From NCBI RefSeq assembly GCF_900112415.1, contig NZ_FOLV01000001.1:62001-126000 (forward strand): DNA of 64,000 nucleotides, read 5' to 3'. The DNA comes from Bacillus sp. 491mf. Its GTDB lineage: Bacteria > Bacillota > Bacilli > Bacillales > Bacillaceae_G. Positions within the stretch are counted from its first letter, which is position 1, and every line of letters starts with the position of its first letter. Shown piece after piece: positions 3,850-61,212 of the stretch. Made by a program: the position numbers and the translations under genes. The notes beneath the pieces were generated by a model. The model saw only the letters and a program-made list of their open reading frames with translations, was not told the origin of the DNA and ran no database searches.

Positions 3850-3996
3850 ATATAAGTCGCTATTATGCAGAACGAAATATGACCTGCATTTGCTTTTTCC
3901 CTTTGTTCGAAACTTGGCATGTGGTAGGGAAAAGGCCCTAACCGTTTCTATGCACGCCAGAAGCTCTTGCCCACCTAAAAAAGGGTCTTTATATCA
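3850..3996 (-). repeat. Interspersed repeat family A, copy 1
   Basis: About 147 bp. It shares ordered blocks with the copies at 6150, 22386, 33885, 35071, 52147 and 58284: ATAAGTCGC at one end, GGCATGTGGTAGG...GGCCCTAACCG in the centre, TTCTATGC...GCTCTTGCCC and a TTTATAT end. No ORF. It lies between two convergent genes. Confidence 0.8.
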
Positions 3997-13267: not shown

Positions 13268-13402
13268 ATAAAGTGGTACTTCCGTTAGCGGGCGAATCTT
13301 CGCTGATCGCTATTTGAACGAATCGGGCTTTTCGGACAGTCTACCTTCTTCAGGTTTTTTACAATCTTGAGGCGGCTGCTTTATTGTCCGTTAATGCAGG
13401 AA
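13268..13402 (+). repeat. Repeat family B, copy 1 (diverged)
   Basis: It follows the family order: ATAAAG end, TCAG/TTAG-GGGG hairpin, GAATCGGGCTTTTCGGACAGT, TCTTGAGGC, then TTATTGTCCGTTAATGCAGGA. About 135 bp, with several changes from copies 2 and 4. Confidence 0.75.
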
Positions 13403-13444
13403 AAATATGACTCATCCTTATAAGGGGTGAGTCGTATTTTTTTG
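13401..13444 (-). terminator. Terminator of the minus-strand HAD gene
   Basis: GACTCACCCCTTATAAGGATGAGTC on the minus strand, followed by ATATTTTT; flanked by T-runs on both sides, so possibly bidirectional. The stem contains the stop codon of the HAD gene. Confidence 0.75.
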
Positions 13445-27768: not shown

Positions 27769-27924
27769 ATAAAGTGAAACTTCCATCAGTGGGGGGGGTC
27801 ATTCCCCACTGGTGGTTAGTTGAACCAATCGGGCTTTTACGGACAGTTAGACTCCCACCTATCTTCTTTGCTTCTCTCCCAATCTTGAGGTGGGAGTCTT
27901 ACTGTCCGTTAATGCGGGATAAAT
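27769..27924 (+). repeat. Repeat family B, copy 2 (156 bp) inserted in the 3' end of mtnD
   Basis: Bounded by ATAAAG (27769) and ATAAAT (27919), i.e. TTTAT on the minus strand at both ends. It contains the CATCAGTGGGG hairpin, CCAATCGGGCTTTTACGGACAG and a stem GACTCCCACCT...AGGTGGGAGTC. Length and TTTAT duplication match the published description of the B. cereus group element bcr1. It supplies the last 19 codons and the stop of mtnD. Confidence 0.9.
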
Positions 27925-28428
27925 AGGAACCCAACCTTCAGTTGTTACAAAAATACGAATTGCGACAACTTGACGATCATTTTGAAGAGAAAAATAATGT
28001 CTCGTGTTTTCAGGAACCGAAATTAAATCTCCAGGTTCAAGTTCAACGTCGAAGAATGGACCATTTTTTCCTTGGATGGTAAAAATGCCATGCCCGCTGA
28101 CGATAAAGCGAACTTCATCATCAGTATGATGGTGTTCTTGTCTAAAGTTTACTAATAATTCTTCTAGATTAGGTGAGGCACTAGAAAGTGAAATAATATC
28201 GCTCGCTTGATAGCCGCGGCGCTTAGAAATATCCGTAACTTCTGGTGCAAACACTTCTAAAATTTCATTCTTATTTTCAACAGTTAATGCATAGTTTTCA
28301 TATAAATGACCAGGAAGTTTTGTAATATCCCATTTTTCATACAAAACACCTTCATTTTTTAAGAACTGCTGTACTTCTATTTCATTTTCAATACGTGTGT
28401 TAATTTCATGAATACGTATTTGCGCCAT
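27859..28428 (-). CDS. mtnD: Acireductone dioxygenase with repeat-derived C-terminus
   Basis: 189 residues from ATG 28428; AAAGGAGATGTTC lies upstream, and an ATG at 28437 is in frame. A cupin enzyme of methionine salvage that oxidises acireductone to the ketoacid KMTB plus formate. Metal ligands are in [11 protein letters not shown] and the His of RHYF. The body ends GWVPIY as in homologues; the last 19 residues ([19 protein letters not shown]) are encoded by repeat B2. The start overlaps mtnB by 23 bp. Confidence 0.95.
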
Positions 28429-29044
28429 GTTGAACATCTCCTTTAATTGATAAAAGTTTAATATGGAACTGAAATAGAAATTCGTATGCTTCTAATCTTT
28501 TTTTTGTATCAAACCCATCTTTTCCCCATACGGTAATGCCGTGATTGCGAATTAAAACAGCACCTGCATCTTCATGAATATGCTTGCGGAATTCTTCACC
28601 TAAAGTTGGAATATGTGCATAATTTTCGATAATTGGAATTCGAATAGAGGCTCCTTCTTCCCAAATATTGAGCGCTTTAATAATTTCTTGATTACGGAGT
28701 ACAACTTCTTGATCGTATACGTTCGTAATGACATTATTATCAGTCGTATGAATGTGTAAGACACACGCAGCATTTGTAAGGTTATAAATGTAGGTGTGCA
28801 GCAGTGTTTCGGCAGAAGGGCGTAAATCAGTTTCTAAAACAGGCTTGCTGTTTTGATCAACTAACAAAAAGTCGTCCGGCGTTGTTTTTGTTTTATCTCT
28901 TCCGCTTGCTGTAACGAGAAAGGTAAGAGGATTATCACTCACTTTTATTGAAATATTACCGCTTGTTGCTGGGAACCAATTCCGATCAGTTAATTCTTTT
29001 TTTAGTTCACTCAGTTCTTGCCACTGACGAAAGAGCTGCCTCAC
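28406..29044 (-). CDS. mtnB: Methylthioribulose-1-phosphate dehydratase
   Basis: 212 residues. A zinc enzyme of the class II aldolase fold that dehydrates MTRu-1-P to the diketo form. Visible: [14 protein letters not shown] near residue 25, the metal-binding HIHTTDNNV (about 98-106) and [13 protein letters not shown]. It overlaps mtnX by 4 bp and mtnD by 23 bp, so the operon mtnW-X-B-D is fully overlapped. Controlled by the SAM riboswitch upstream of mtnW. Confidence 0.95.
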
Positions 29045-29700
29045 TTTATCACTCCTAACAATTTTTCCACTTCGTTTTGTATATCATGAAATGTTTCAAA
29101 TGGTACATAAGGAATATGATGTTCTATACATTTAGTAATCAAAAAGTCACGAGCAAATACTTTGTCAGCAAGTTTTGCTGCTTGCAAATCTGTAATAGAA
29201 TCACCGATTACAATATTAAAACCGCTTTGTGAACTTAAATTGCGAATAAGCGTTGATTTACAGAGACCACATTTATTTTCACAATGCTCATCGCACGAAT
29301 GCGGCCAATTTACTTGAATTGTGTCGTTGGAAAAATCAGTTGTATTACAGTAAATTTGTTCAAAATCAACTAGTCCTTCGAGAAGAGGATAAACAAAAAA
29401 GTCCATTCCTCCTGATATGATATAAAGTGAGATATTATTTTGTCGTAAAAAATGTACAAATTCTGTAAAGCCAGTACGAATGACGGCGGTTTCTTTTATA
29501 TAGGCTGTAATTTTATTTTGTAAACTTGAAGGCAATAGAGAAAAAAGCATTCCTACGCCTTCTTGAATAGATAGCTCTTGTGATAAAATTTGCTGTTTAA
29601 TAGCTTCTGCCTCTGGTGGTGCAAATTTTTGTATAATGGCAACAATGTTATCATTATTTGTAATTGTGCCATCGAAGTCACAAAAAATTTGAATGCTCAT
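29041..29700 (-). CDS. mtnX: HK-MTPenyl-1-P phosphatase
   Basis: 219 residues, HAD superfamily: [14 protein letters not shown] (nucleophile DxD), [29 protein letters not shown] Cys-rich patch ([13 protein letters not shown], about residues 137-149) is characteristic of MtnX. It dephosphorylates the product of MtnW in methionine salvage. Overlaps both neighbours by 4 bp. Confidence 0.95.
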
Positions 29701-30941
29701 GCTTTCACCTCTTTAGTAGGATTGCCCCAGAGACGCAAAGCAGCTTGTAAATAAGAATCATCAACCTCATGAAGCGGCGTGTTGGTTAAAGCTGCATCGA
29801 TAGCAGCTCGAAATGCTTTTCCACCCCCCTGTGCACCGGATGGATGGCCGTGAATACCGCCGCCAGCATTAATGACACATTGCTCACCGAAGTCACGAAT
29901 CAGTAGTGGGACAAGTCCTGGATGAATACCAGCAGATGGAACCGGAAAGCTACGCTTAAATGGTTCATTTTCATCTGTAAGCGCTTTGGCTAAATGAAGT
30001 GCTTCTTCTTGTTGTAAAGCGACATTTCCATAAGGTGATGGAAATAGTGAGAAATCTGCACCAGCATAGCGAAGGAGCTTGCCGAGTAATAAAGAAGAAG
30101 ATACCCCATATAATTTAGATGTTATGTAAGTTCCACTTACTGCTGGATGTGCCATAATTGGGATAGAAATATTATTATCTTCCGCTAGGGCTTGCAACAC
30201 ATCAAGTCCATATGCGAATACGTTGAAAAGTAAAAGGTCAGCCCCGGCATCAACGGCTTGTTTTGCTTTTTCTTTTAAATCATAAGTCCGTCCTGAAAGA
30301 TTAACAGCATATAACATTTTATGACCGTATGTTTCATAAACAGATTGCAATACTTCTTTCCCAGCGTGAATGCGTTCTGATAACGGTGTTAACGGATTAT
30401 CAAATAAAATCTCATCATCTTTTACAATGTCAACGCCGCCGTTCGCTTGATCGCGGAGCTGTGTTTTTAAATAACCGATATTCCGGCCGATCATTCCTTT
30501 GAAAATACTCATGAGCAGGGGGCGATTGTGAACATTCAAATTGTTTCGTATTTTATCAATACCAAATTTAGGACCAGGGAAGCTCTTTTTAATCTCATCA
30601 GAAAATGTTAAATCAATTAATTTTATTTCTCCGTCCAAAGATAATTTTCCGAAAACAGTTGTAAAAATTGCTGGTAAGTCGGTTGTGAAGTTAGCGGATG
30701 GATAATGAATTTTAATAAATCCGCGTGTTACTTTTTTATTAAGGTATATGTTTGTATTTTCATCAGTTTCTAATTTTTCTACGCTAACGACTGAGCCTTT
30801 ATGTCGTCTTAATTGTTCTTGTAATAAGTGTGGTAAATGTGTCCACGAACCAACTGTTAAACCGAGAGCAATTTGCTCTGCTTTTTTGATTAAATTATGA
30901 GAATCATCGTGAATGAAGTAAGTTGCTGTTATTCCGCTCAT
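29697..30941 (-). CDS. mtnW: Diketo-methylthiopentyl-1-phosphate enolase (RuBisCO-like)
   Basis: 414 residues from ATG 30941, which has AGGAGG at the right distance; an ATG at 30947 is too close. RuBisCO-like protein: the metal/carbamate loop reads [15 protein letters not shown], with MAHPAVSGT and [16 protein letters not shown] (phosphate loop). It enolises the diketo intermediate. First gene of mtnW-X-B-D, behind a SAM-I riboswitch. Confidence 0.96.
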
Positions 30942-30962
30942 TTTCATAACCTCCTAGTTGAA

Positions 30963-31112
30963 TAAAAAAACCTCTCAGCTAAGGAGAGGTTTTTTACAAC
31001 CAGCTCCTTATCTGTCAGCATAACGCTGCGAGAATTAGCACCGTGCCTACATAAAGTAGATCGGTTGCCGGGTTTCATCGGGCTCGTCCCTCCACCAGCT
31101 CTTGATAAGAAG
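30963..31112 (-). promoter_or_regulatory. SAM-I riboswitch (S-box) of mtnWXBD
   Basis: On the minus strand: CTTATCAAGAGCTGGTGGAG (P1/P2), then GAGCCCGATGAAACCCGGCA, CGGTGCTAATTC and GACAGATAAGGAG closing P1, followed by a terminator (CCTCTCCTTAGCTGAGAGG, then TTTTTTT) at 30965-30996. High SAM favours the terminator. Confidence 0.97.
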
Positions 31113-31162: not shown

Positions 31163-32353
31163 TTACGTTGTCAATTGTTTTTTGAAAATTTTTAATTTAG
31201 CGATTCTATGAATTGCTTCTTGAAGGCGTTCCTCTGAATGTAATAAACCGACGCGAATATAACCTTCCCCGTGTTTGCCGAAGCCGATGCCTGGAGCGAC
31301 AGCAACGTGCGCTTGTTTTAATAGTACATCAGCAAATTCCTCTGACGTATACCCATTTGGAACAGGGAGCCAGGCAAAGAAAGAACCTTTTGGTGAAGTG
31401 ACATTCCAGCCGATAGAACGACAAGCAGTAATGAAAGCATTTCTTCGAGATTCATAGCGTTCTACGAGTTCATCGACACAAGTTTGCGGGCTTAATAATG
31501 CTTCGCGAGCAGCTTCTTGTACAGCACCAAAAATACTAACATACATATGATCTTGTAATAAGTTAATCGTTTCAATAACACTTTCATTTCCGGCGGCAAA
31601 TGCAATGCGCCAACCTGCCATATTATACGTTTTGGACAACGTATATATTTCAATGCCAACATTTTTTGCTCCATCAGTTTGTAAGAAACTAGTTGGTTTT
31701 TTAGCGTCAAAACCAATCGCTCCATACGCAAAATCATGACAGACTAAAATGTCATGTTTATTTGCAAACGATACAGTATCCTCAAAGAACTTTGGTGTTG
31801 CAACAGCTCCGGTTGGATTGTTCGGATAGTTTAAAAACATTAATTTTGCCTTTTCAACCGCTTGTGCATCAATCTTTGTGTAATCAGGTAAAAATTGATT
31901 TTCTGATAATAGTGGCATTGTAGCAATCTTTGTTTTTGCTAAGGCTATCCCTGATAAATAATCTGGATAACCTGGATCAGGAACGAGGATTGTATCACCT
32001 GGATTCGTAAAACAAAGTGGTAACTCAACTAAGCCAGCTTTTCCACCAAATAGAATAGCTACTTCTGTTTTGGGATTTAATTGTACACCGTACTCACGCT
32101 CATAAAAGGTAGCGACAGCCTCTTTTAAACTATCATGTCCTCGAAATGGCGGGTATTTATGATGAATAGGGTGCTTTGCTGCATGTTGTAATGCTATTAC
32201 GATGTGATCTGGTGTTGGTTGATCAGGATTTCCTTGTCCTAAGTTAATAACATCATGACCAGCTTGCATTACTCCATTTACTTTGGCGACAAGGGAGGCA
32301 AAAAATTGTGTTGGTAATGATGTTAATATCTCGGAAGGTTGAAAATGTTTCAT
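31163..32353 (-). CDS. mtnE: KMTB aminotransferase (methionine salvage)
   Basis: 396 residues from ATG 32353 (AAAGAGGTGG upstream; the GTG at 32362 lies within that RBS). Class I PLP aminotransferase: INLGQGNPDQPTPDHI, LNYPNNPTG, CHDFAYGAIGFD and the PLP Lys in LSKTYNMAGWRIAF. It transaminates KMTB to methionine, the last salvage step (B. subtilis YkrV). It lies upstream of the S-box operon and points the same way; the S-box lies 50 bp past its stop. It starts divergently from mtnU. Confidence 0.9.
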   Translation of the reverse strand: MKHFQPSEILTSLPTQFFASLVAKVNGVMQAGHDVINLGQGNPDQPTPDHIVIALQHAAKHPIHHKYPPFRGHDSLKEAVATFYEREYGVQLNPKTEVAILFGGKAGLVELPLCFTNPGDTILVPDPGYPDYLSGIALAKTKIATMPLLSENQFLPDYTKIDAQAVEKAKLMFLNYPNNPTGAVATPKFFEDTVSFANKHDILVCHDFAYGAIGFDAKKPTSFLQTDGAKNVGIEIYTLSKTYNMAGWRIAFAAGNESVIETINLLQDHMYVSIFGAVQEAAREALLSPQTCVDELVERYESRRNAFITACRSIGWNVTSPKGSFFAWLPVPNGYTSEEFADVLLKQAHVAVAPGIGFGKHGEGYIRVGLLHSEERLQEAIHRIAKLKIFKKQLTT

Positions 32354-32456
32354 ACTTTCCACCTCTTTTGAAAGTTGTTACAATTATAGTGACAAATGAT
32401 ATAGTCTTTCCAACTTTTTGTAAAGAAAAAAATAAAAAGGAAGAAGGAAGAGAGTA

Positions 32457-33248
32457 ATGAAAATTGCTTGTGTACAAATGAATATCACTTTTGGCGATGT
32501 TGAAAAAAATATAGAACATGCTGAAAAAAAAATAAGCGAAGCGATAAAGGAAAATCCAGATGTTATTGTATTACCAGAGTTATGGACAACAGGTTATGAT
32601 TTAGAGCGCCTTCCTGAAATTGCGGATTTAGATGGGAATTATACGAAATGTTTATTATCAAAGTGGAGTAAGCAAAACGACGTAAATATTGTCGGTGGTT
32701 CAATCGCTAAACAAACGGAGAATGGTGTTACAAATACGATGTATGTTAGTGATCGAAATGGAAACATTGTAGCTGAATATAGTAAAGTGCATTTGTTTCA
32801 ACTGATGGATGAGCATAAATACTTAATTGCTGGAAATGAAACGGGGCATTTTCTACTGGAGGATATACCATGCGCAGGAACAATTTGCTATGATATTCGT
32901 TTTCCAGAATGGATGCGCGTTCATACCGCGCACGGGGCAACTGTATTATTTGTTGTAGCAGAGTGGCCGCTTGTTCGTTTAGCACATTGGCGGTTATTGC
33001 TTCAGGCAAGAGCGATTGAAAATCAATGTTTTGTTGTGGCATGCAATCGTGCTGGGAGTGACCCTAATAATGTATTTGCAGGACATTCTCTTATTATTGA
33101 TCCTTGGGGAGAAATTGTTACTGAAGCTGATGAAACAGAAACAATTTTGTTTGCAACATTAGATACAAACAAAATCTCAGAAGTGCGAAAGGGGATTCCT
33201 GTTTTTTTTGATCGACGTCCAGAATTGTACGCGCAAAAAAAAAGTTGA
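32457..33248 (+). CDS. mtnU: Carbon-nitrogen hydrolase MtnU
   Basis: 263 residues. Nitrilase-superfamily triad: Glu in VLPELWTTGYD, Lys in EYSKVHLFQ, Cys in AGTICYDIRFPEWMR. In Bacillus it neighbours mtnE; it probably acts as omega-amidase on the 2-oxo acid amide formed by glutamine-dependent transamination (family inference). RBS GGAAGAGAG. Divergent from mtnE, with about 100 bp shared promoter region. Confidence 0.9.
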   Translation: MKIACVQMNITFGDVEKNIEHAEKKISEAIKENPDVIVLPELWTTGYDLERLPEIADLDGNYTKCLLSKWSKQNDVNIVGGSIAKQTENGVTNTMYVSDRNGNIVAEYSKVHLFQLMDEHKYLIAGNETGHFLLEDIPCAGTICYDIRFPEWMRVHTAHGATVLFVVAEWPLVRLAHWRLLLQARAIENQCFVVACNRAGSDPNNVFAGHSLIIDPWGEIVTEADETETILFATLDTNKISEVRKGIPVFFDRRPELYAQKKS

Positions 33249-33309
33249 CAAGCCAATTTTATTCTTGATATAGTCAGAACTGAAAATGGAAAATTCGGAC
33301 AACTATATA

Positions 33310-33505
33310 CTCTTATCAAGAGCAGGTGGAGGGATTTGGCCCGATGAAACCCAGCAACCGACCGTAATACCATTGTGAAATGGGGCGCATAATTGGCGCC
33401 TAGTAAGGAACGGTGCTAATTCCAACAGAAAGAGAGACTTTCTGATAGATAAGAGGGGAGAAGTGAATCTTCAAACCTCTTTCGTTGTAGAAAGGGGTTT
33501 TCTTA
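33310..33505 (+). promoter_or_regulatory. SAM-I riboswitch without a salvage gene downstream
   Basis: CTTATCAAGAGCAGGTGGAG, GGCCCGATGAAACCCAGCAACC, GGTGCTAATTCC and GATAGATAAGAGGGGAG give a full S-box, followed by an anti-terminator/terminator (AAACCTCTTTC...GAAAGGGGTTTTCTT, 33472-33505). In B. subtilis the equivalent element precedes mtnK-mtnA. Here only a broken mtnK-like start and a YvrJ-like peptide follow. Confidence 0.95.
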
Positions 33506-33541
33506 TGATGAAAAGCCCTAATATATTAGGGGGGAAACAAA

Positions 33542-33586
33542 GTGGGATACAAGTAGTTAACAGAAAAAACAGCTGAAATGATTTAG
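33542..33586 (+). pseudogene. mtnK: Remnant of the 5' end of mtnK (methylthioribose kinase)
   Basis: Preceded by AGGGGGG. GTG then reads MGYK-stop-LTEKTAEMI-stop. As I recall MtnK of the B. cereus group begins about MGYYALTETTAIQYA; M, G, Y, L, T, E, T and A fall in register. Only about 15 codons remain, with two stops; no other kinase or mtnA sequence follows. The match is short but its place, straight after an S-box and RBS, supports it. Confidence 0.65.
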
Positions 33587-33650
33587 TTTGTTTTTAGTTA
33601 CCACTTTTTTGTCTCTTCACTTATTTATAATAAGAAGGGAGGAGACAACG

Positions 33651-33812
33651 ATGGAGGAATGGATATCAGTTATTGGCAATGTCGGCTTTCCGATTGTTGT
33701 TACACTATACTTACTTCATAGAATTGAAAGTAAGTTAGATAGCGTTATTGTTGCGATTGAGAAGTTACCAAAGCAAATGCAAGGATATGAATCTCCAAAG
33801 GAAAATATGTAA
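33651..33812 (+). CDS. YvrJ-like small membrane peptide
   Basis: 53 residues from ATG 33651, preceded by GGGAGGAG. An N-terminal hydrophobic helix (ISVIGNVGFPIVVTLYLLHRI) is followed by a polar helix (ESKLDSVIVAIEKL) and a short tail. This is the YvrJ-family pattern: small phage- or holin-like membrane proteins of unknown role. Downstream of the orphan S-box, so it may now be under SAM control if the region is one transcript. A strong terminator follows. Confidence 0.8.
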   Translation: MEEWISVIGNVGFPIVVTLYLLHRIESKLDSVIVAIEKLPKQMQGYESPKENM

Positions 33813-33814
33813 CG

Positions 33815-33852
33815 GAAACGGATTGTGCGGAAGAGGCACAATCCGTTTTTGG
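33815..33852 (+). terminator. Terminator after the YvrJ-like gene
   Basis: AAACGGATTGTG pairs with CACAATCCGTTTTT. Confidence 0.9.
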
Positions 33853-33884
33853 GTTGGTGAATATATCCAAATTTAAAGAACAAC

Positions 33885-34034
33885 ATAAAAACCTCTTTCT
33901 TTTTGGGGAGGACAAGAGCATCTGGCCGTGTGTAGAAGCGGTCAGGGCCTATTTTTGCCACATGTGAGATTTCAAACAAAGGGAGGAAGCGAATACAGGT
34001 ACATATTTTGGTCTGCATAGCGGCGACTTATATA
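33885..34034 (+). repeat. Repeat family A, copy 4 (full length, about 150 bp)
   Basis: Reference copy: ATAAAAACCTCTTTC, GGGGAGGACAAGAGCATCTGG, TAGAAGCGGTCAGGGCC, GCCACATGTGAG, then TTTGGTCTGCATAGCGGCGA and CTTATAT. The GACCGCTTCTA/TAGAAGCGGTC blocks recur in the same order in all longer copies. No ORF. Confidence 0.85.
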
Positions 34035-35070: not shown

Positions 35071-35219
35071 ATATAAGTCGCTGCTTTGCAGAATACAACA
35101 TGGCCGCTACTTGTTTTCTTGTTTTGTTTTCATCCTTGCATGTGGTAGGAAAAGGCCCTGACCGTTTCTATGCGTGGCCAGATGCTCTCGTCCTTCTAAA
35201 AAGAAAAGAGTTTTTATAT
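35071..35219 (-). repeat. Repeat family A, copy 5
   Basis: ATATAAGTCGCTG, GCATGTGGTAGG, GGCCCTGACCG, TTCTATGCGTGGCC and GATGCTCTCGTCC match copy 4 in reverse. A short plus-strand ORF across it is not a gene. Confidence 0.85.
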
Positions 35220-36750: not shown

Positions 36751-37029
36751 TTTATCCCGCTATTCGCGGGCGGTAATACTCCCGCCTCAAAATTCAGCGG
36801 AAGCATTGTCCAGCTTTAGCGGCTAGAATCTTCGGTCGTTTCGCCCCCTCGGACGAGGCAAAAAGCTCCTCTCCGCCCTGTGCGTGGGCGTCCTGCGATT
36901 CTGAGCGAGCCGCTTCCGCTTTTCTTAAGAAGTTAGGCGGGAGATAAACTGCCCGTAAAAGCCCGATTGGTGAGGGCTGATAATCAGTGGGGGGTGAAGA
37001 AAACCCCATTGATTAAAGTTTCGCTTTAT
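36751..37029 (-). repeat. Repeat family B, copy 3, with a GC-rich insert
   Basis: TTTATCCCGCTATTCGCGGG at the left and AGTTTCGCTTTAT at the right match copy 4; both ends are TTTAT. Relative to copy 4, about 102 bp (36830-36931) interrupt it after GGCTAGAAT. The insert is much more GC-rich and with its borders forms an inverted repeat (AGCGGCTAGAATC / GATTCTGAGCGAGCCGCT). The 36651-37290 gap has no gene. Confidence 0.85.
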
Positions 37030-42540: not shown

Positions 42541-42715
42541 AGTGAAACTTTAATCAGTGGGGGTTTTCTTCATTCCCCACTGATTATCAACCCTTACCAA
42601 TCGGGCTTTTACGAACAGTTTATCTCCCACCTAACATTCTAGCCACTGGAACTGAACACTGCTTTCACTGAATTTTGAGGTGGGAGTATTACTGCCCACG
42701 AATAGCGGGATAAAG
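42537..42715 (+). repeat. Repeat family B, copy 4 (179 bp), flanked by ATAAAG
   Basis: Starts at the RDD stop codon with ATAAAGTGAAACTT, contains TCAGTGGGGGTTTTC, CCAATCGGGCTTTTACGAACAG, TCTCCCACCTAAC, TTTTGAGGTGGGAGTATTAC and ends GAATAGCGGGATAAAG. ATAAAG at both borders suggests a target duplication. Confidence 0.9.
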
Positions 42716-53410: not shown

Positions 53411-54555
53411 TGTATAAATGTTTCTAAACGGTCACAGCCTGCTTTCAGCATTTCCATGCTATAAGCATATGAAATACGAATGTACCCTTCACCATATTCA
53501 GAAAATGCGGAGCCTGGAACAACAGCGAGTTTAGCTTCTTTCACAAGTTCCATTGCAAAATCAAAAGAAGAAGAAGAGAAATCACCGATATAAGGGAAGA
53601 GATAAAATGCTCCTGTTGGTTTTTCTACAGTTAATCCCATTTGTACAAGACGGTTGTATACATAATCAAGGCGCTTTTGGTATTGATGACGCATCATACG
53701 GGGAGCGTCTTTAGCTGCTGTTAATGCTTCAATTGCCGCATATTGTGCAATTGAAGTTGCACATGTAACATTATATTGATGAACTTTTAAGATTTGACTT
53801 GCCAAAAAGCTTGGTGCAAATAAAAAACCGATACGCCATCCTGTCATAGAATGAGATTTTGATAAACCGTTAATGACAATTGTTTTATTGCGCATCTCTG
53901 GGAAATTTGCAATAGAAATATGTTCATGCTCATATACAAGTTCACTGTAAATTTCATCGGAAAGAACAAATATATCTTTATTCTTTAATACTGCTACAAT
54001 TTCTTCGAGTTCTTCTTTGGATAATGTTACGCCAGTTGGATTTGATGGATATGGTAATACGATGCAACGTGTTTTGTCTGTAATTGCTTCTTCAATTGCT
54101 TTTGCAGTTAAACGAAAGCCAGTATTACGAACATCTACAAAAACAGGCTTTGCACCGCACAGGCGAATGATAGGTTCATATCCAGGATAGACAGGAGCTG
54201 GTAAAATTACTTCTGTTCCTTCTTCCAAAATTGTCCGAAAGGCAATATCGATTGCCTCACTTGCTCCAATAGTGACAATTGCTTCATTCTCAGGAGAATA
54301 TATTAAATCATAGCGTTCTTTTAAAAAATCACATGCGGCTTGACGAAGTGGTAATAAGCCTGCATTATGTGTATAACTTGTAAAATTTTCTACAATGGCC
54401 CGTTTAGCGGCCTCCTTCACTAAAGAAGGCGTTGGAAAGTCAGGTTGTCCGATTGTGAGTGAAATAAGATCGTCATAATTTTGAATCATGTTAGAAAATT
54501 GACGAATTCCAGATATTTGAATGTCCTTTACACGAGGGTTAATAAATTGTTCCAT
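53398..54555 (-). CDS. patA: PLP-dependent aminotransferase PatA
   Basis: 385 residues. Class I/II aminotransferase: SLTIGQPDFPTPSLVK, SYTHNAGLLPLR, YPSNPTGVTLSKEE, SDEIYSELVYE and the PLP Lys in NGLSKSHSMTGWRIGF. It resembles B. subtilis PatA, the probable N-acetyl-LL-diaminopimelate aminotransferase of lysine synthesis. RBS AAAGGGAG. A small Cys-containing gene lies upstream on the same strand, behind a terminator. Confidence 0.88.
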   Translation of the reverse strand: MEQFINPRVKDIQISGIRQFSNMIQNYDDLISLTIGQPDFPTPSLVKEAAKRAIVENFTSYTHNAGLLPLRQAACDFLKERYDLIYSPENEAIVTIGASEAIDIAFRTILEEGTEVILPAPVYPGYEPIIRLCGAKPVFVDVRNTGFRLTAKAIEEAITDKTRCIVLPYPSNPTGVTLSKEELEEIVAVLKNKDIFVLSDEIYSELVYEHEHISIANFPEMRNKTIVINGLSKSHSMTGWRIGFLFAPSFLASQILKVHQYNVTCATSIAQYAAIEALTAAKDAPRMMRHQYQKRLDYVYNRLVQMGLTVEKPTGAFYLFPYIGDFSSSSFDFAMELVKEAKLAVVPGSAFSEYGEGYIRISYAYSMEMLKAGCDRLETFIQQKN

Positions 54556-60914: not shown

Positions 60915-61110
60915 CCTCATCATCCGTGAGTCTATCAGTGCCGTTAAAATAGGCAGGTCTCCTGGCTCATGCATCAGCGATTTCAATCACCTTCCCGTTT
61001 TCACAGTGGTATATAGAAAGAAATCTTTGCACTTACAGTGGCGGGACCGCGTTGGTTTTTCACCAAACTTCCCTATTAAACACGAAAATATTTTTTCGTG
61101 TACCTATCTC
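60915..61110 (-). promoter_or_regulatory. Cobalamin riboswitch upstream of metE
   Basis: On the minus strand: AATAGGGAAGTTTGGTGAAA, then CCAACGCGGTCCCGCCACTG (core), GGGAAGG, and GAGCCAGGAGACCTGCCT (B12 box). The order and spacing are those of the AdoCbl aptamer. Binding of B12 should favour the downstream terminator and turn metE off. Confidence 0.95.
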
Positions 61111-61212
61111 CTTTTGGAAAGGAATGTAACTAGCGTATATGATATTGAAACAGATTTTATCTTATATTTTTGAAAATGTCTACTATTTTAAAAAATAAGA
61201 TAATTCATTTTA

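What the first reader, a model, noticed from the sequence alone, without database searches (positions are those of the whole stretch)
33310..33590. Orphan SAM riboswitch followed by a decayed mtnK start: mtnK-mtnA apparently deleted
A complete S-box with its terminator (33310-33505) leads to an RBS (AGGGGGG) and GTG reading MGYK-stop-LTEKTAEMI-stop, which lines up with the expected start of MtnK, and then to an unrelated YvrJ-like peptide. mtnU, mtnE and mtnWXBD are all present and apart from MtnD's tail look intact. If mtnK and mtnA are not elsewhere, methylthioribose cannot enter the pathway, and the remaining enzymes would lack their normal substrate unless another route feeds MTRu-1-P.
Basis: partly seen in the sequence, partly recalled or inferred. 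Interest (0 to 1): 0.78.

Follow-up and report, generated by a model that had tools for sequence, protein, structure and literature searches.

The report
Riboswitch stranded by deleted salvage genes
A bacterium that looks related to Bacillus cereus has lost two methionine-recycling genes from their usual place, leaving behind their RNA switch and the first few codons of one gene, while the genes for the later steps look intact.

Summary
Observation confirmed. Window 33310-33455 is a SAM (S-box) aptamer (79.2 bits), followed by a terminator, an RBS and GTG GGA TAC AAG TAG TTA ACA GAA AAA ACA GCT. This aligns with codons 1-11 of Ectobacillus panaciterrae mtnK (25 of 33 nt; 0 of 1000 shuffles). 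Four relatives have mtnU, S-box, mtnK, mtnA and, 70-2583 bases on, yvrJ. Here yvrJ follows the stub, so mtnKA was deleted at this place.

Genome-wide loss is NOT shown: no genome is held. Base rates argue against it. Of 203 sampled genomes with strong mtnW, 202 have strong mtnK; the exception has a stop in mtnW. Of six genomes with mtnWXBD but incomplete mtnKA beside it, five have both genes in the genome; a metagenome bin lacks mtnA. MtnW, X, B and D are full length; MtnD's odd tail comes from a dispersed repeat. A relocated copy or DrdK/DrdI moonlighting seems likelier than a dead pathway.

By-product: this S-box has a conserved, covarying multi-hairpin module in P3 (found in 136 of 397 genomes).

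The parts
33245..33274 (+). sigma-70-type promoter-like site of the former mtnKA operon (TTGACA-18-TATAGT)
   Evidence: TTGACA invariant in the window and 5 relatives aligned
33310..33455 (+). SAM (S-box) riboswitch aptamer, mtnK type
   Evidence: Rfam RF00162, 79.2 bits
33360..33410 (+). conserved two-hairpin module inside P3 of the S-box; the window copy has an inserted A and C->A (GCACGG read as GAACGG)
   Evidence: model R1 60.1 bits, the window copy being one of its 32 sequences; covariation; departures
33473..33505 (+). intrinsic terminator of the expression platform; T-tract TTTTCTT
   Evidence: fold; compared with 11 relatives
33528..33534 (+). Shine-Dalgarno sequence of former mtnK; a hairpin CCCTAATATATTAGGG (33516-33531) overlaps it
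33542..33575 (+). remnant of mtnK codons 1-11 (M G Y K * L T E K T A)
   Evidence: BLAST to G001 continues to window 33575
33571..33600 (+). probable junction; the right side aligns with the mtnA 3' end and mtnA-yvrJ spacer of G002/G004
   Evidence: scores 53 and 52, 0 of 300 shuffles; much of the score comes from the yvrJ leader; against G018 153 of 300
33651..33812 (+). yvrJ-family small protein, downstream of mtnA in four relatives, now first gene after the S-box
   Evidence: Pfam PF12841; synteny
32457..33248 (+). mtnU (carbon-nitrogen hydrolase)
31163..32362 (-). mtnE aminotransferase
31005..31111 (-). second S-box, upstream of mtnW, short P3, reads GCACGG
29697..30947 (-). mtnW enolase
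   Evidence: NCBIfam TIGR03332 702 bits, cut-off 513.6
29041..29700 (-). mtnX phosphatase
   Evidence: TIGR03333 352 bits, cut-off 303
28406..29044 (-). mtnB dehydratase
   Evidence: TIGR03328 204 bits, cut-off 137
27859..28437 (-). mtnD dioxygenase with about 20-aa C-terminal extension from a dispersed repeat
   Evidence: Pfam ARD; repeat D4; no NCBIfam hit

Best explanation
An ancestral operon, promoter - S-box - mtnK - mtnA - (yvrJ), lost about 2.2 kb from codon 11 or 12 of mtnK to about the end of mtnA (inferred from comparison with four relatives). The promoter, SAM riboswitch, terminator, RBS and an 11-codon mtnK stub with a nonsense codon stayed behind (shown). Transcription is presumably still attenuated by SAM. 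When SAM is low, read-through would now yield a 4-codon peptide and then yvrJ (inferred). The riboswitch module carries two changes not seen in the comparable S-boxes, so the leader is probably under relaxed constraint (inferred). Because MtnW, X, B and D are full length and mtnW was not found intact without mtnK in the sample, MTRu-1-P is probably still made in this cell, either by an mtnK/mtnA copy elsewhere or by a DrdK/DrdI-type kinase and isomerase (inferred, not testable here). The less likely alternative is that the lower pathway is a relic not yet decayed.
For: Synteny: mtnU-S-box-mtnK-mtnA-yvrJ in G001, G002, G004 and G018, mtnA-yvrJ gaps 2583, 70, 70 and 615. Continuous BLAST of the window to G001 up to base 33575, the yvrJ match 4.8 kb further on. 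mtnK stub 25 of 33 nt, 0 of 1000 shuffles. CA before CGGTGC in 38 of 38 other distinct extended-P3 S-boxes and in 32 of 32 mtnW S-box rows (one genome twice, the window's own included), against AA in the stranded one. 202 of 203 mtnW genomes keep mtnK; the exception G286 has a stop in mtnW. 5 of 6 genomes with mtnWXBD and incomplete mtnKA beside it have both genes. DrdK uses MTR as well as 5-deoxyribose (PMC6079011, passages).
Against: The window's genome is not held, so no copy elsewhere has been seen. No genome close to the window was found: best MtnU match 70% in a capped list; the best-scoring DNA match among 19 family genomes is 72% identical. The age and spread of the deletion are therefore unknown, and the intact state is inferred from other genera. 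In G002 and G004 the mtnK start gives no significant match to the stub. The lower enzymes look fast in this lineage: where all outgroups agree, 28 window-only against 6 E. panaciterrae-only changes in 450 columns (p 0.0002), and 9 of 303 near-invariant columns changed against 0 of 138 in MtnE and MtnU (p 0.06). That favours a dying pathway. The CA-CGG motif is not universal: 13 of 16 S-boxes without an assigned mtn gene read otherwise or lack CGGTGC. L017's genome has mtnWXBD and mtnK but no mtnA found, so a gap in the upper pathway is not unknown.
Confidence: 0.62

Rival explanations
1. True loss of function: mtnK and mtnA are gone from the whole genome, MTR is exported as waste, and mtnWXBD is a relic.
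For: Nonsense-bearing stub, stranded S-box with two changes; nine departures from near-invariant columns in MtnW/X/B/D, none in MtnE/U; where all outgroups agree, 28 window-only against 6 E. panaciterrae-only changes in the four lower enzymes; pairwise MtnW 51:27, X 31:11, B 28:12 against G018, D 17:6 against L006. Complete loss of mtnK, mtnA and mtnW with mtnU next to yvrJ exists in G003.
Against: All four enzymes are full length and W, X, B score above curated cut-offs. Other sequences show as many or more departures in W (up to 16), B (up to 3) and X (up to 2); only MtnD is highest (2, others at most 1). MtnE also runs fast (36:22 against G018), MtnU does not consistently (27:19 against G018, 17:26 against L006), and the pooled control had only 100 columns, 2:1. 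mtnW over the cut-off without strong mtnK was not seen among 201 genomes.
Confidence: 0.3
2. The gap is an assembly artefact: a collapsed or misjoined region that really holds mtnKA.
For: The window's origin cannot be checked; no genome is held.
Against: The stub has its own nonsense codon and substitutions, and the leader changes are not what a misjoin gives; the junction is smooth into the conserved yvrJ leader.
Confidence: 0.04
3. Chance resemblance: 33542-33586 is ordinary spacer, and the S-box has long regulated yvrJ in this lineage.
For: The remnant is only 34 nt and is not significant against 24 of 32 genomes' mtnK starts. An S-box after mtnU need not precede mtnK: in seven more distant loci (L026, L039, L044, L073, L075, L078, L079) an ABC-transporter-like gene follows it.
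Against: Match to the nearest available genus with RBS, start and reading frame in register, 0 of 1000 shuffles; in all five family relatives aligned mtnK follows this S-box; the window S-box has the extended P3, those seven a short one.
Confidence: 0.04

Closest known systems
S-box - mtnK-mtnA operon of Bacillaceae (Ectobacillus panaciterrae, B. subtilis group)
   Same: Promoter, S-box with extended P3, terminator, RBS, position after mtnU; before yvrJ in four family relatives
   Different: Coding sequence reduced to 11 codons with a stop; yvrJ is now the first gene
Relocated mtnKA (G023, G024, G025, G028; mtnA alone in G027)
   Same: mtnWXBD-mtnE-mtnU cluster lacking part or all of mtnKA beside it
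   Different: mtnK and mtnA are elsewhere in those genomes; the four without mtnK beside mtnU (L012, L014, L015, L027) show no S-box after mtnU by pattern
Complete methionine-salvage loss with mtnU beside yvrJ (G003)
   Same: mtnU followed by yvrJ, no mtnK or mtnA
   Different: No S-box (by pattern) and no mtnW either
DrdK-DrdI-DrdA 5-deoxyribose salvage (B. thuringiensis; PMC6079011, passages)
   Same: Kinase able to act on MTR and an isomerase proposed to; possible substitute
   Different: No MtnK- or MtnA-like protein in the window; presence in this genome not testable

Membership tests
SAM-I (S-box) riboswitch | Aptamer matches RF00162 above gathering score | tested here: met
   79.2 against 44.4 bits
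SAM-I (S-box) riboswitch | Terminator downstream of the aptamer | tested here: met
   Fold 33473-33500 plus T-tract; the simple terminator scan did not list it
SAM-I (S-box) riboswitch | Binds SAM and controls termination | not testable with these tools
   Needs in vitro work
mtnK-type S-box (extended P3 module) | Module found by covariance model R1 | tested here: met
   60.1 bits, E 4e-13; the window copy was one of the 32 sequences in the model
Pseudogene remnant of mtnK | Homology of the stub to mtnK start, in register after S-box and RBS | tested here: met
Pseudogene remnant of mtnK | Intact mtnK at this place in near relatives | tested here: inconclusive
   Present in G001, G002, G004, G018 and G019 (same family); no closer genome found
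Broken methionine salvage pathway | No MTR kinase or MTR-1-P isomerase in the genome | not testable with these tools
   No genome held; none in the 64 kb

The most novel reading that the evidence does not exclude
The S-box stranded here belongs to a subtype whose P3 arm is a conserved multi-branch RNA module (GUAAUA joint, first hairpin often with a GNRA-type loop, GC hairpin, optional third hairpin, UAAGG). I saw it on S-boxes of mtnKA, mtnWXBD, a ribose-type ABC transporter and metE. It could be a second sensor, for instance of MTR or MTA, or a tertiary-contact element built into the SAM aptamer, making these leaders nested two-input switches.
Probability: 0.1. Interest if true: 0.75.

Novelty: new member of a known kind. 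Interest (0 to 1): 0.36.

Why it matters
It is a clear fossil of operon loss: the regulator and the first codons survive the enzymes. If the genome truly lacks MTR kinase and isomerase, it would have no parallel among the 201 sampled genomes with mtnW over the cut-off, and would ask what feeds an intact set of later enzymes. If it has DrdK/DrdI instead, it would be a natural test of the proposed moonlighting between 5-deoxyribose and methionine salvage. The stranded leader also drew attention to a conserved module in P3 of certain S-boxes; my searches showed no paper describing it, but most S-box literature is not held.

Tried and rejected
Plasmid search of 33250-33860: 11 records, none covering 80%; the matched parts lie in the S-box. 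Viral-contig scan with MtnU: nothing. Rfam at E<=10 on 33345-33425: no family. First S-box regex found nothing, corrected. Idea that the P3 module is specific to mtnK: suggested (and by my note), then rejected, since one search finds it on metE, mtnW and ABC-transporter S-boxes too. Idea that the module explains the weak methionine response of the B. subtilis mtnKA leader (highest induction ratio 2.5, against 17, 26 and 45 for samT, metIC and metE; PMC8882085, passages): weakened, because five metE S-boxes opened carry the module; that L158-L159 are B. subtilis-like is my recall of the MetE sequence. Relaxed-selection test: suggestive only; it lacks neutral control genes, and the pooled MtnE count failed because L009's MtnE shares almost no usable columns.

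Literature. Listings only: 3 papers; 2 papers. Passages read: PMC6302742, PMC6079011, PMC8725734, PMC8882085, PMC5911993 (69, irrelevant), PMC9481103 (SAM-I tandems, word 'nested' absent), PMC13273304. None of these passages reports this deletion or this P3 module. I recall but did not see Tomsic et al. 2008, which may show the extended helix 3 of B. subtilis mtnK (ykrT). That B. cereus-group MtnK begins MGYYSLTE is likewise recall.

Full report
What is there. Rfam places a SAM riboswitch at 33310-33455 (79.2 bits) and a second at 31005-31111 on the other strand, in front of mtnW. Behind the first come a terminator hairpin, AGGGGGG and a GTG at 33542. The frame reads MGYK*LTEKTAEMI*. The next gene, 33651-33812, is a YvrJ-family protein. 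tblastn with E. panaciterrae MtnK and MtnA finds neither in the window.

Deletion at the locus. The best MtnU relative in a capped list is 70% identical. The window's genome is not held, and the best-scoring DNA match among the 19 genomes searched in the family of G001 (E. panaciterrae) is 72% identical. I fetched the locus from nine of the 19. Four of the nine carry mtnU, S-box, mtnK, mtnA and then yvrJ on one strand: G001, G002, G004 and G018. In G019, G012, G008 and G017 mtnK and mtnA follow mtnU but no yvrJ was found in the stretch; G003 lacks both. mtnA-yvrJ gaps are 2583, 70, 70 and 615 bases. The window aligns to G001 without a break from mtnU through the S-box to 33575, and the yvrJ match then lies 4.8 kb further on. 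The first 33 nt of the stub agree at 25 positions with E. panaciterrae mtnK (MTYKPLTEETA), 0 of 1000 dinucleotide shuffles doing as well. Of the 32 genomes compared, 8 give 9 or fewer of 1000 and 24 do not. Bases 33571-33600 can be aligned with the 3' end of mtnA and the mtnA-yvrJ spacer of G002/G004, though much of the score comes from the yvrJ leader, and G018 gives nothing (153 of 300 shuffles as good). The simplest history is a deletion of about 2.2 kb from codon 11 or 12 of mtnK to about the end of mtnA.

State of the leader. In 38 of 38 other distinct extended-P3 S-boxes, and in 32 of 32 mtnW S-box rows (one genome twice, the window's own included), the bases before CGGTGC are CA; the stranded S-box alone reads AA. 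It also has an A inserted that the nine other rows of alignment A1 lack. Against this, the motif is not universal: of 16 S-boxes with no assigned mtn gene, 3 read CA, 2 read TA and 11 lack CGGTGC, for example GGGAAGGTGC. The T-tract TTTTCTT is not unusual: G018, L002, L009 and L020 have comparable interruptions. The aptamer is still recognisable, with changes that suggest, but do not prove, relaxed constraint.

State of the lower pathway. MtnW scores 702 bits (cut-off 513.6), MtnX 352 (303), MtnB 204 (137). MtnD is a Pfam ARD protein but hits no NCBIfam model. Against relatives (26 to 89 per protein) the window departs at 4 of 137 near-invariant columns in MtnW, 1 of 43 in MtnX, 2 of 63 in MtnB and 2 of 60 in MtnD, against 0 of 81 in MtnE and 0 of 57 in MtnU; E. 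panaciterrae departs nowhere. Other sequences reach 16, 2, 3 and 1 in W, X, B and D, so only MtnD stands out. Fisher for 9 of 303 against 0 of 138 is p 0.06. Relative-rate counts against G018 (window-only: E. panaciterrae-only) are MtnW 51:27, MtnX 31:11, MtnB 28:12, MtnE 36:22, MtnU 27:19; MtnU reverses with some outgroups (17:26 against L006). Where all outgroups agree, the four lower enzymes show 28 window-only and 6 E. panaciterrae-only changes in 450 columns (p 0.0002); the control had 2:1 in 100 columns, too few to compare (Fisher 0.48). This is a hint of relaxed constraint, or of a generally faster lineage. MtnD's conserved core ends at GWVPIY and then runs about 20 residues into a dispersed repeat shared with 13341-13410.

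Is the pathway really cut? In a sample of 397 genomes of the order, 203 had an mtnW match below 1e-100 (my threshold; 201 genomes exceed the curated cut-off) and 202 of these had an mtnK match below 1e-90. Of seven genomes with weaker mtnW matches, two have strong mtnK and five do not; 19 genomes had mtnK without any mtnW. The exception, G286, has a stop codon inside its better mtnW match. Completeness of these assemblies is not given. From I chose 13 genomes with mtnK or mtnA missing beside mtnU; 12 were held. Six of them have mtnWXBD. Five (L012, L014, L015, L018, L027) have strong mtnK and mtnA in the genome; the sixth, L017, a metagenome bin, has mtnK but no mtnA. G003 has mtnU next to yvrJ with no S-box by pattern and no mtnK, mtnA or mtnW, so total loss also happens. 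DrdK of B. thuringiensis phosphorylates MTR about as well as 5-deoxyribose, and its authors propose moonlighting of DrdK and DrdI in methionine salvage (PMC6079011, passages). I therefore weigh a substitute or relocated kinase-isomerase above a dead pathway, without being able to test it.

By-product: the P3 module. S-boxes in front of mtnK have a long P3, in most a multi-branch junction (L018's differs), while the mtnW S-boxes seen have a short one. On 28 sequences, mostly of the three-hairpin form and many closely related, the shared helices are 99.6% paired and 7 of 17 pairs show changes on both sides; no shuffle of 500 reaches either value or the covariation score, but 306 of 500 reach the number of pair types; slid controls give 25-48% paired. 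A covariance model of the module (R1, 32 sequences) matches 136 of 397 genomes. I opened 20 stretches holding 22 matches, chosen to include those away from mtnK. By eye all 22 lie inside S-boxes: five before metE, seven before a ribose-type ABC transporter, two before short mtnA-like ORFs, six before mtnK, two before mtnW (one of each of the first three kinds was checked by profile, the rest by resemblance). No stand-alone copy was seen among these 22; most of the others were not opened. Rfam gives no family for the stretch on its own. Its function is unknown; a structural role is the conservative guess.

Noticed in passing
33360-33410; loci L001-L174: Conserved covarying multi-hairpin module in P3 of S-boxes before mtnKA, some mtnWXBD, metE and a ribose-type ABC transporter; 136 of 397 genomes.
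   Followed up: partly
27859-27928 and 13341-13410: Dispersed repeat that supplies MtnD's last about 20 residues and its stop codon.
   Followed up: partly
33888-33995 and 35108-35215: Inverted 108-nt repeats, 73% complementary, flanking a short-chain dehydrogenase gene; related copies at 3903, 6361 and 22365; perhaps bcr-type repeats (label recalled, not matched).
   Followed up: no
36751-37007 and 42560-42714: Second family of long inverted dispersed repeats, 85-91% complementary.
   Followed up: no
33516-33531: Hairpin CCCTAATATATTAGGG overlapping the former mtnK Shine-Dalgarno sequence (listed on the other strand); some relatives also have C-runs facing the G-rich RBS, so mtnK may have had a translational control too.
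   Followed up: no
60935-61122 (-): Cobalamin riboswitch, 113.6 bits; downstream gene not examined.
   Followed up: no
53425-54507 (-): Second aminotransferase-like stretch, 26% identical to MtnE.
   Followed up: no
L164 and L169: S-box with P3 module followed by an mtnA-like ORF of 161-170 aa only: possible truncated mtnA in two other genomes (L164 checked).
   Followed up: no
L017 (G026): Metagenome bin with mtnWXBD and mtnK but no mtnA match.
   Followed up: no
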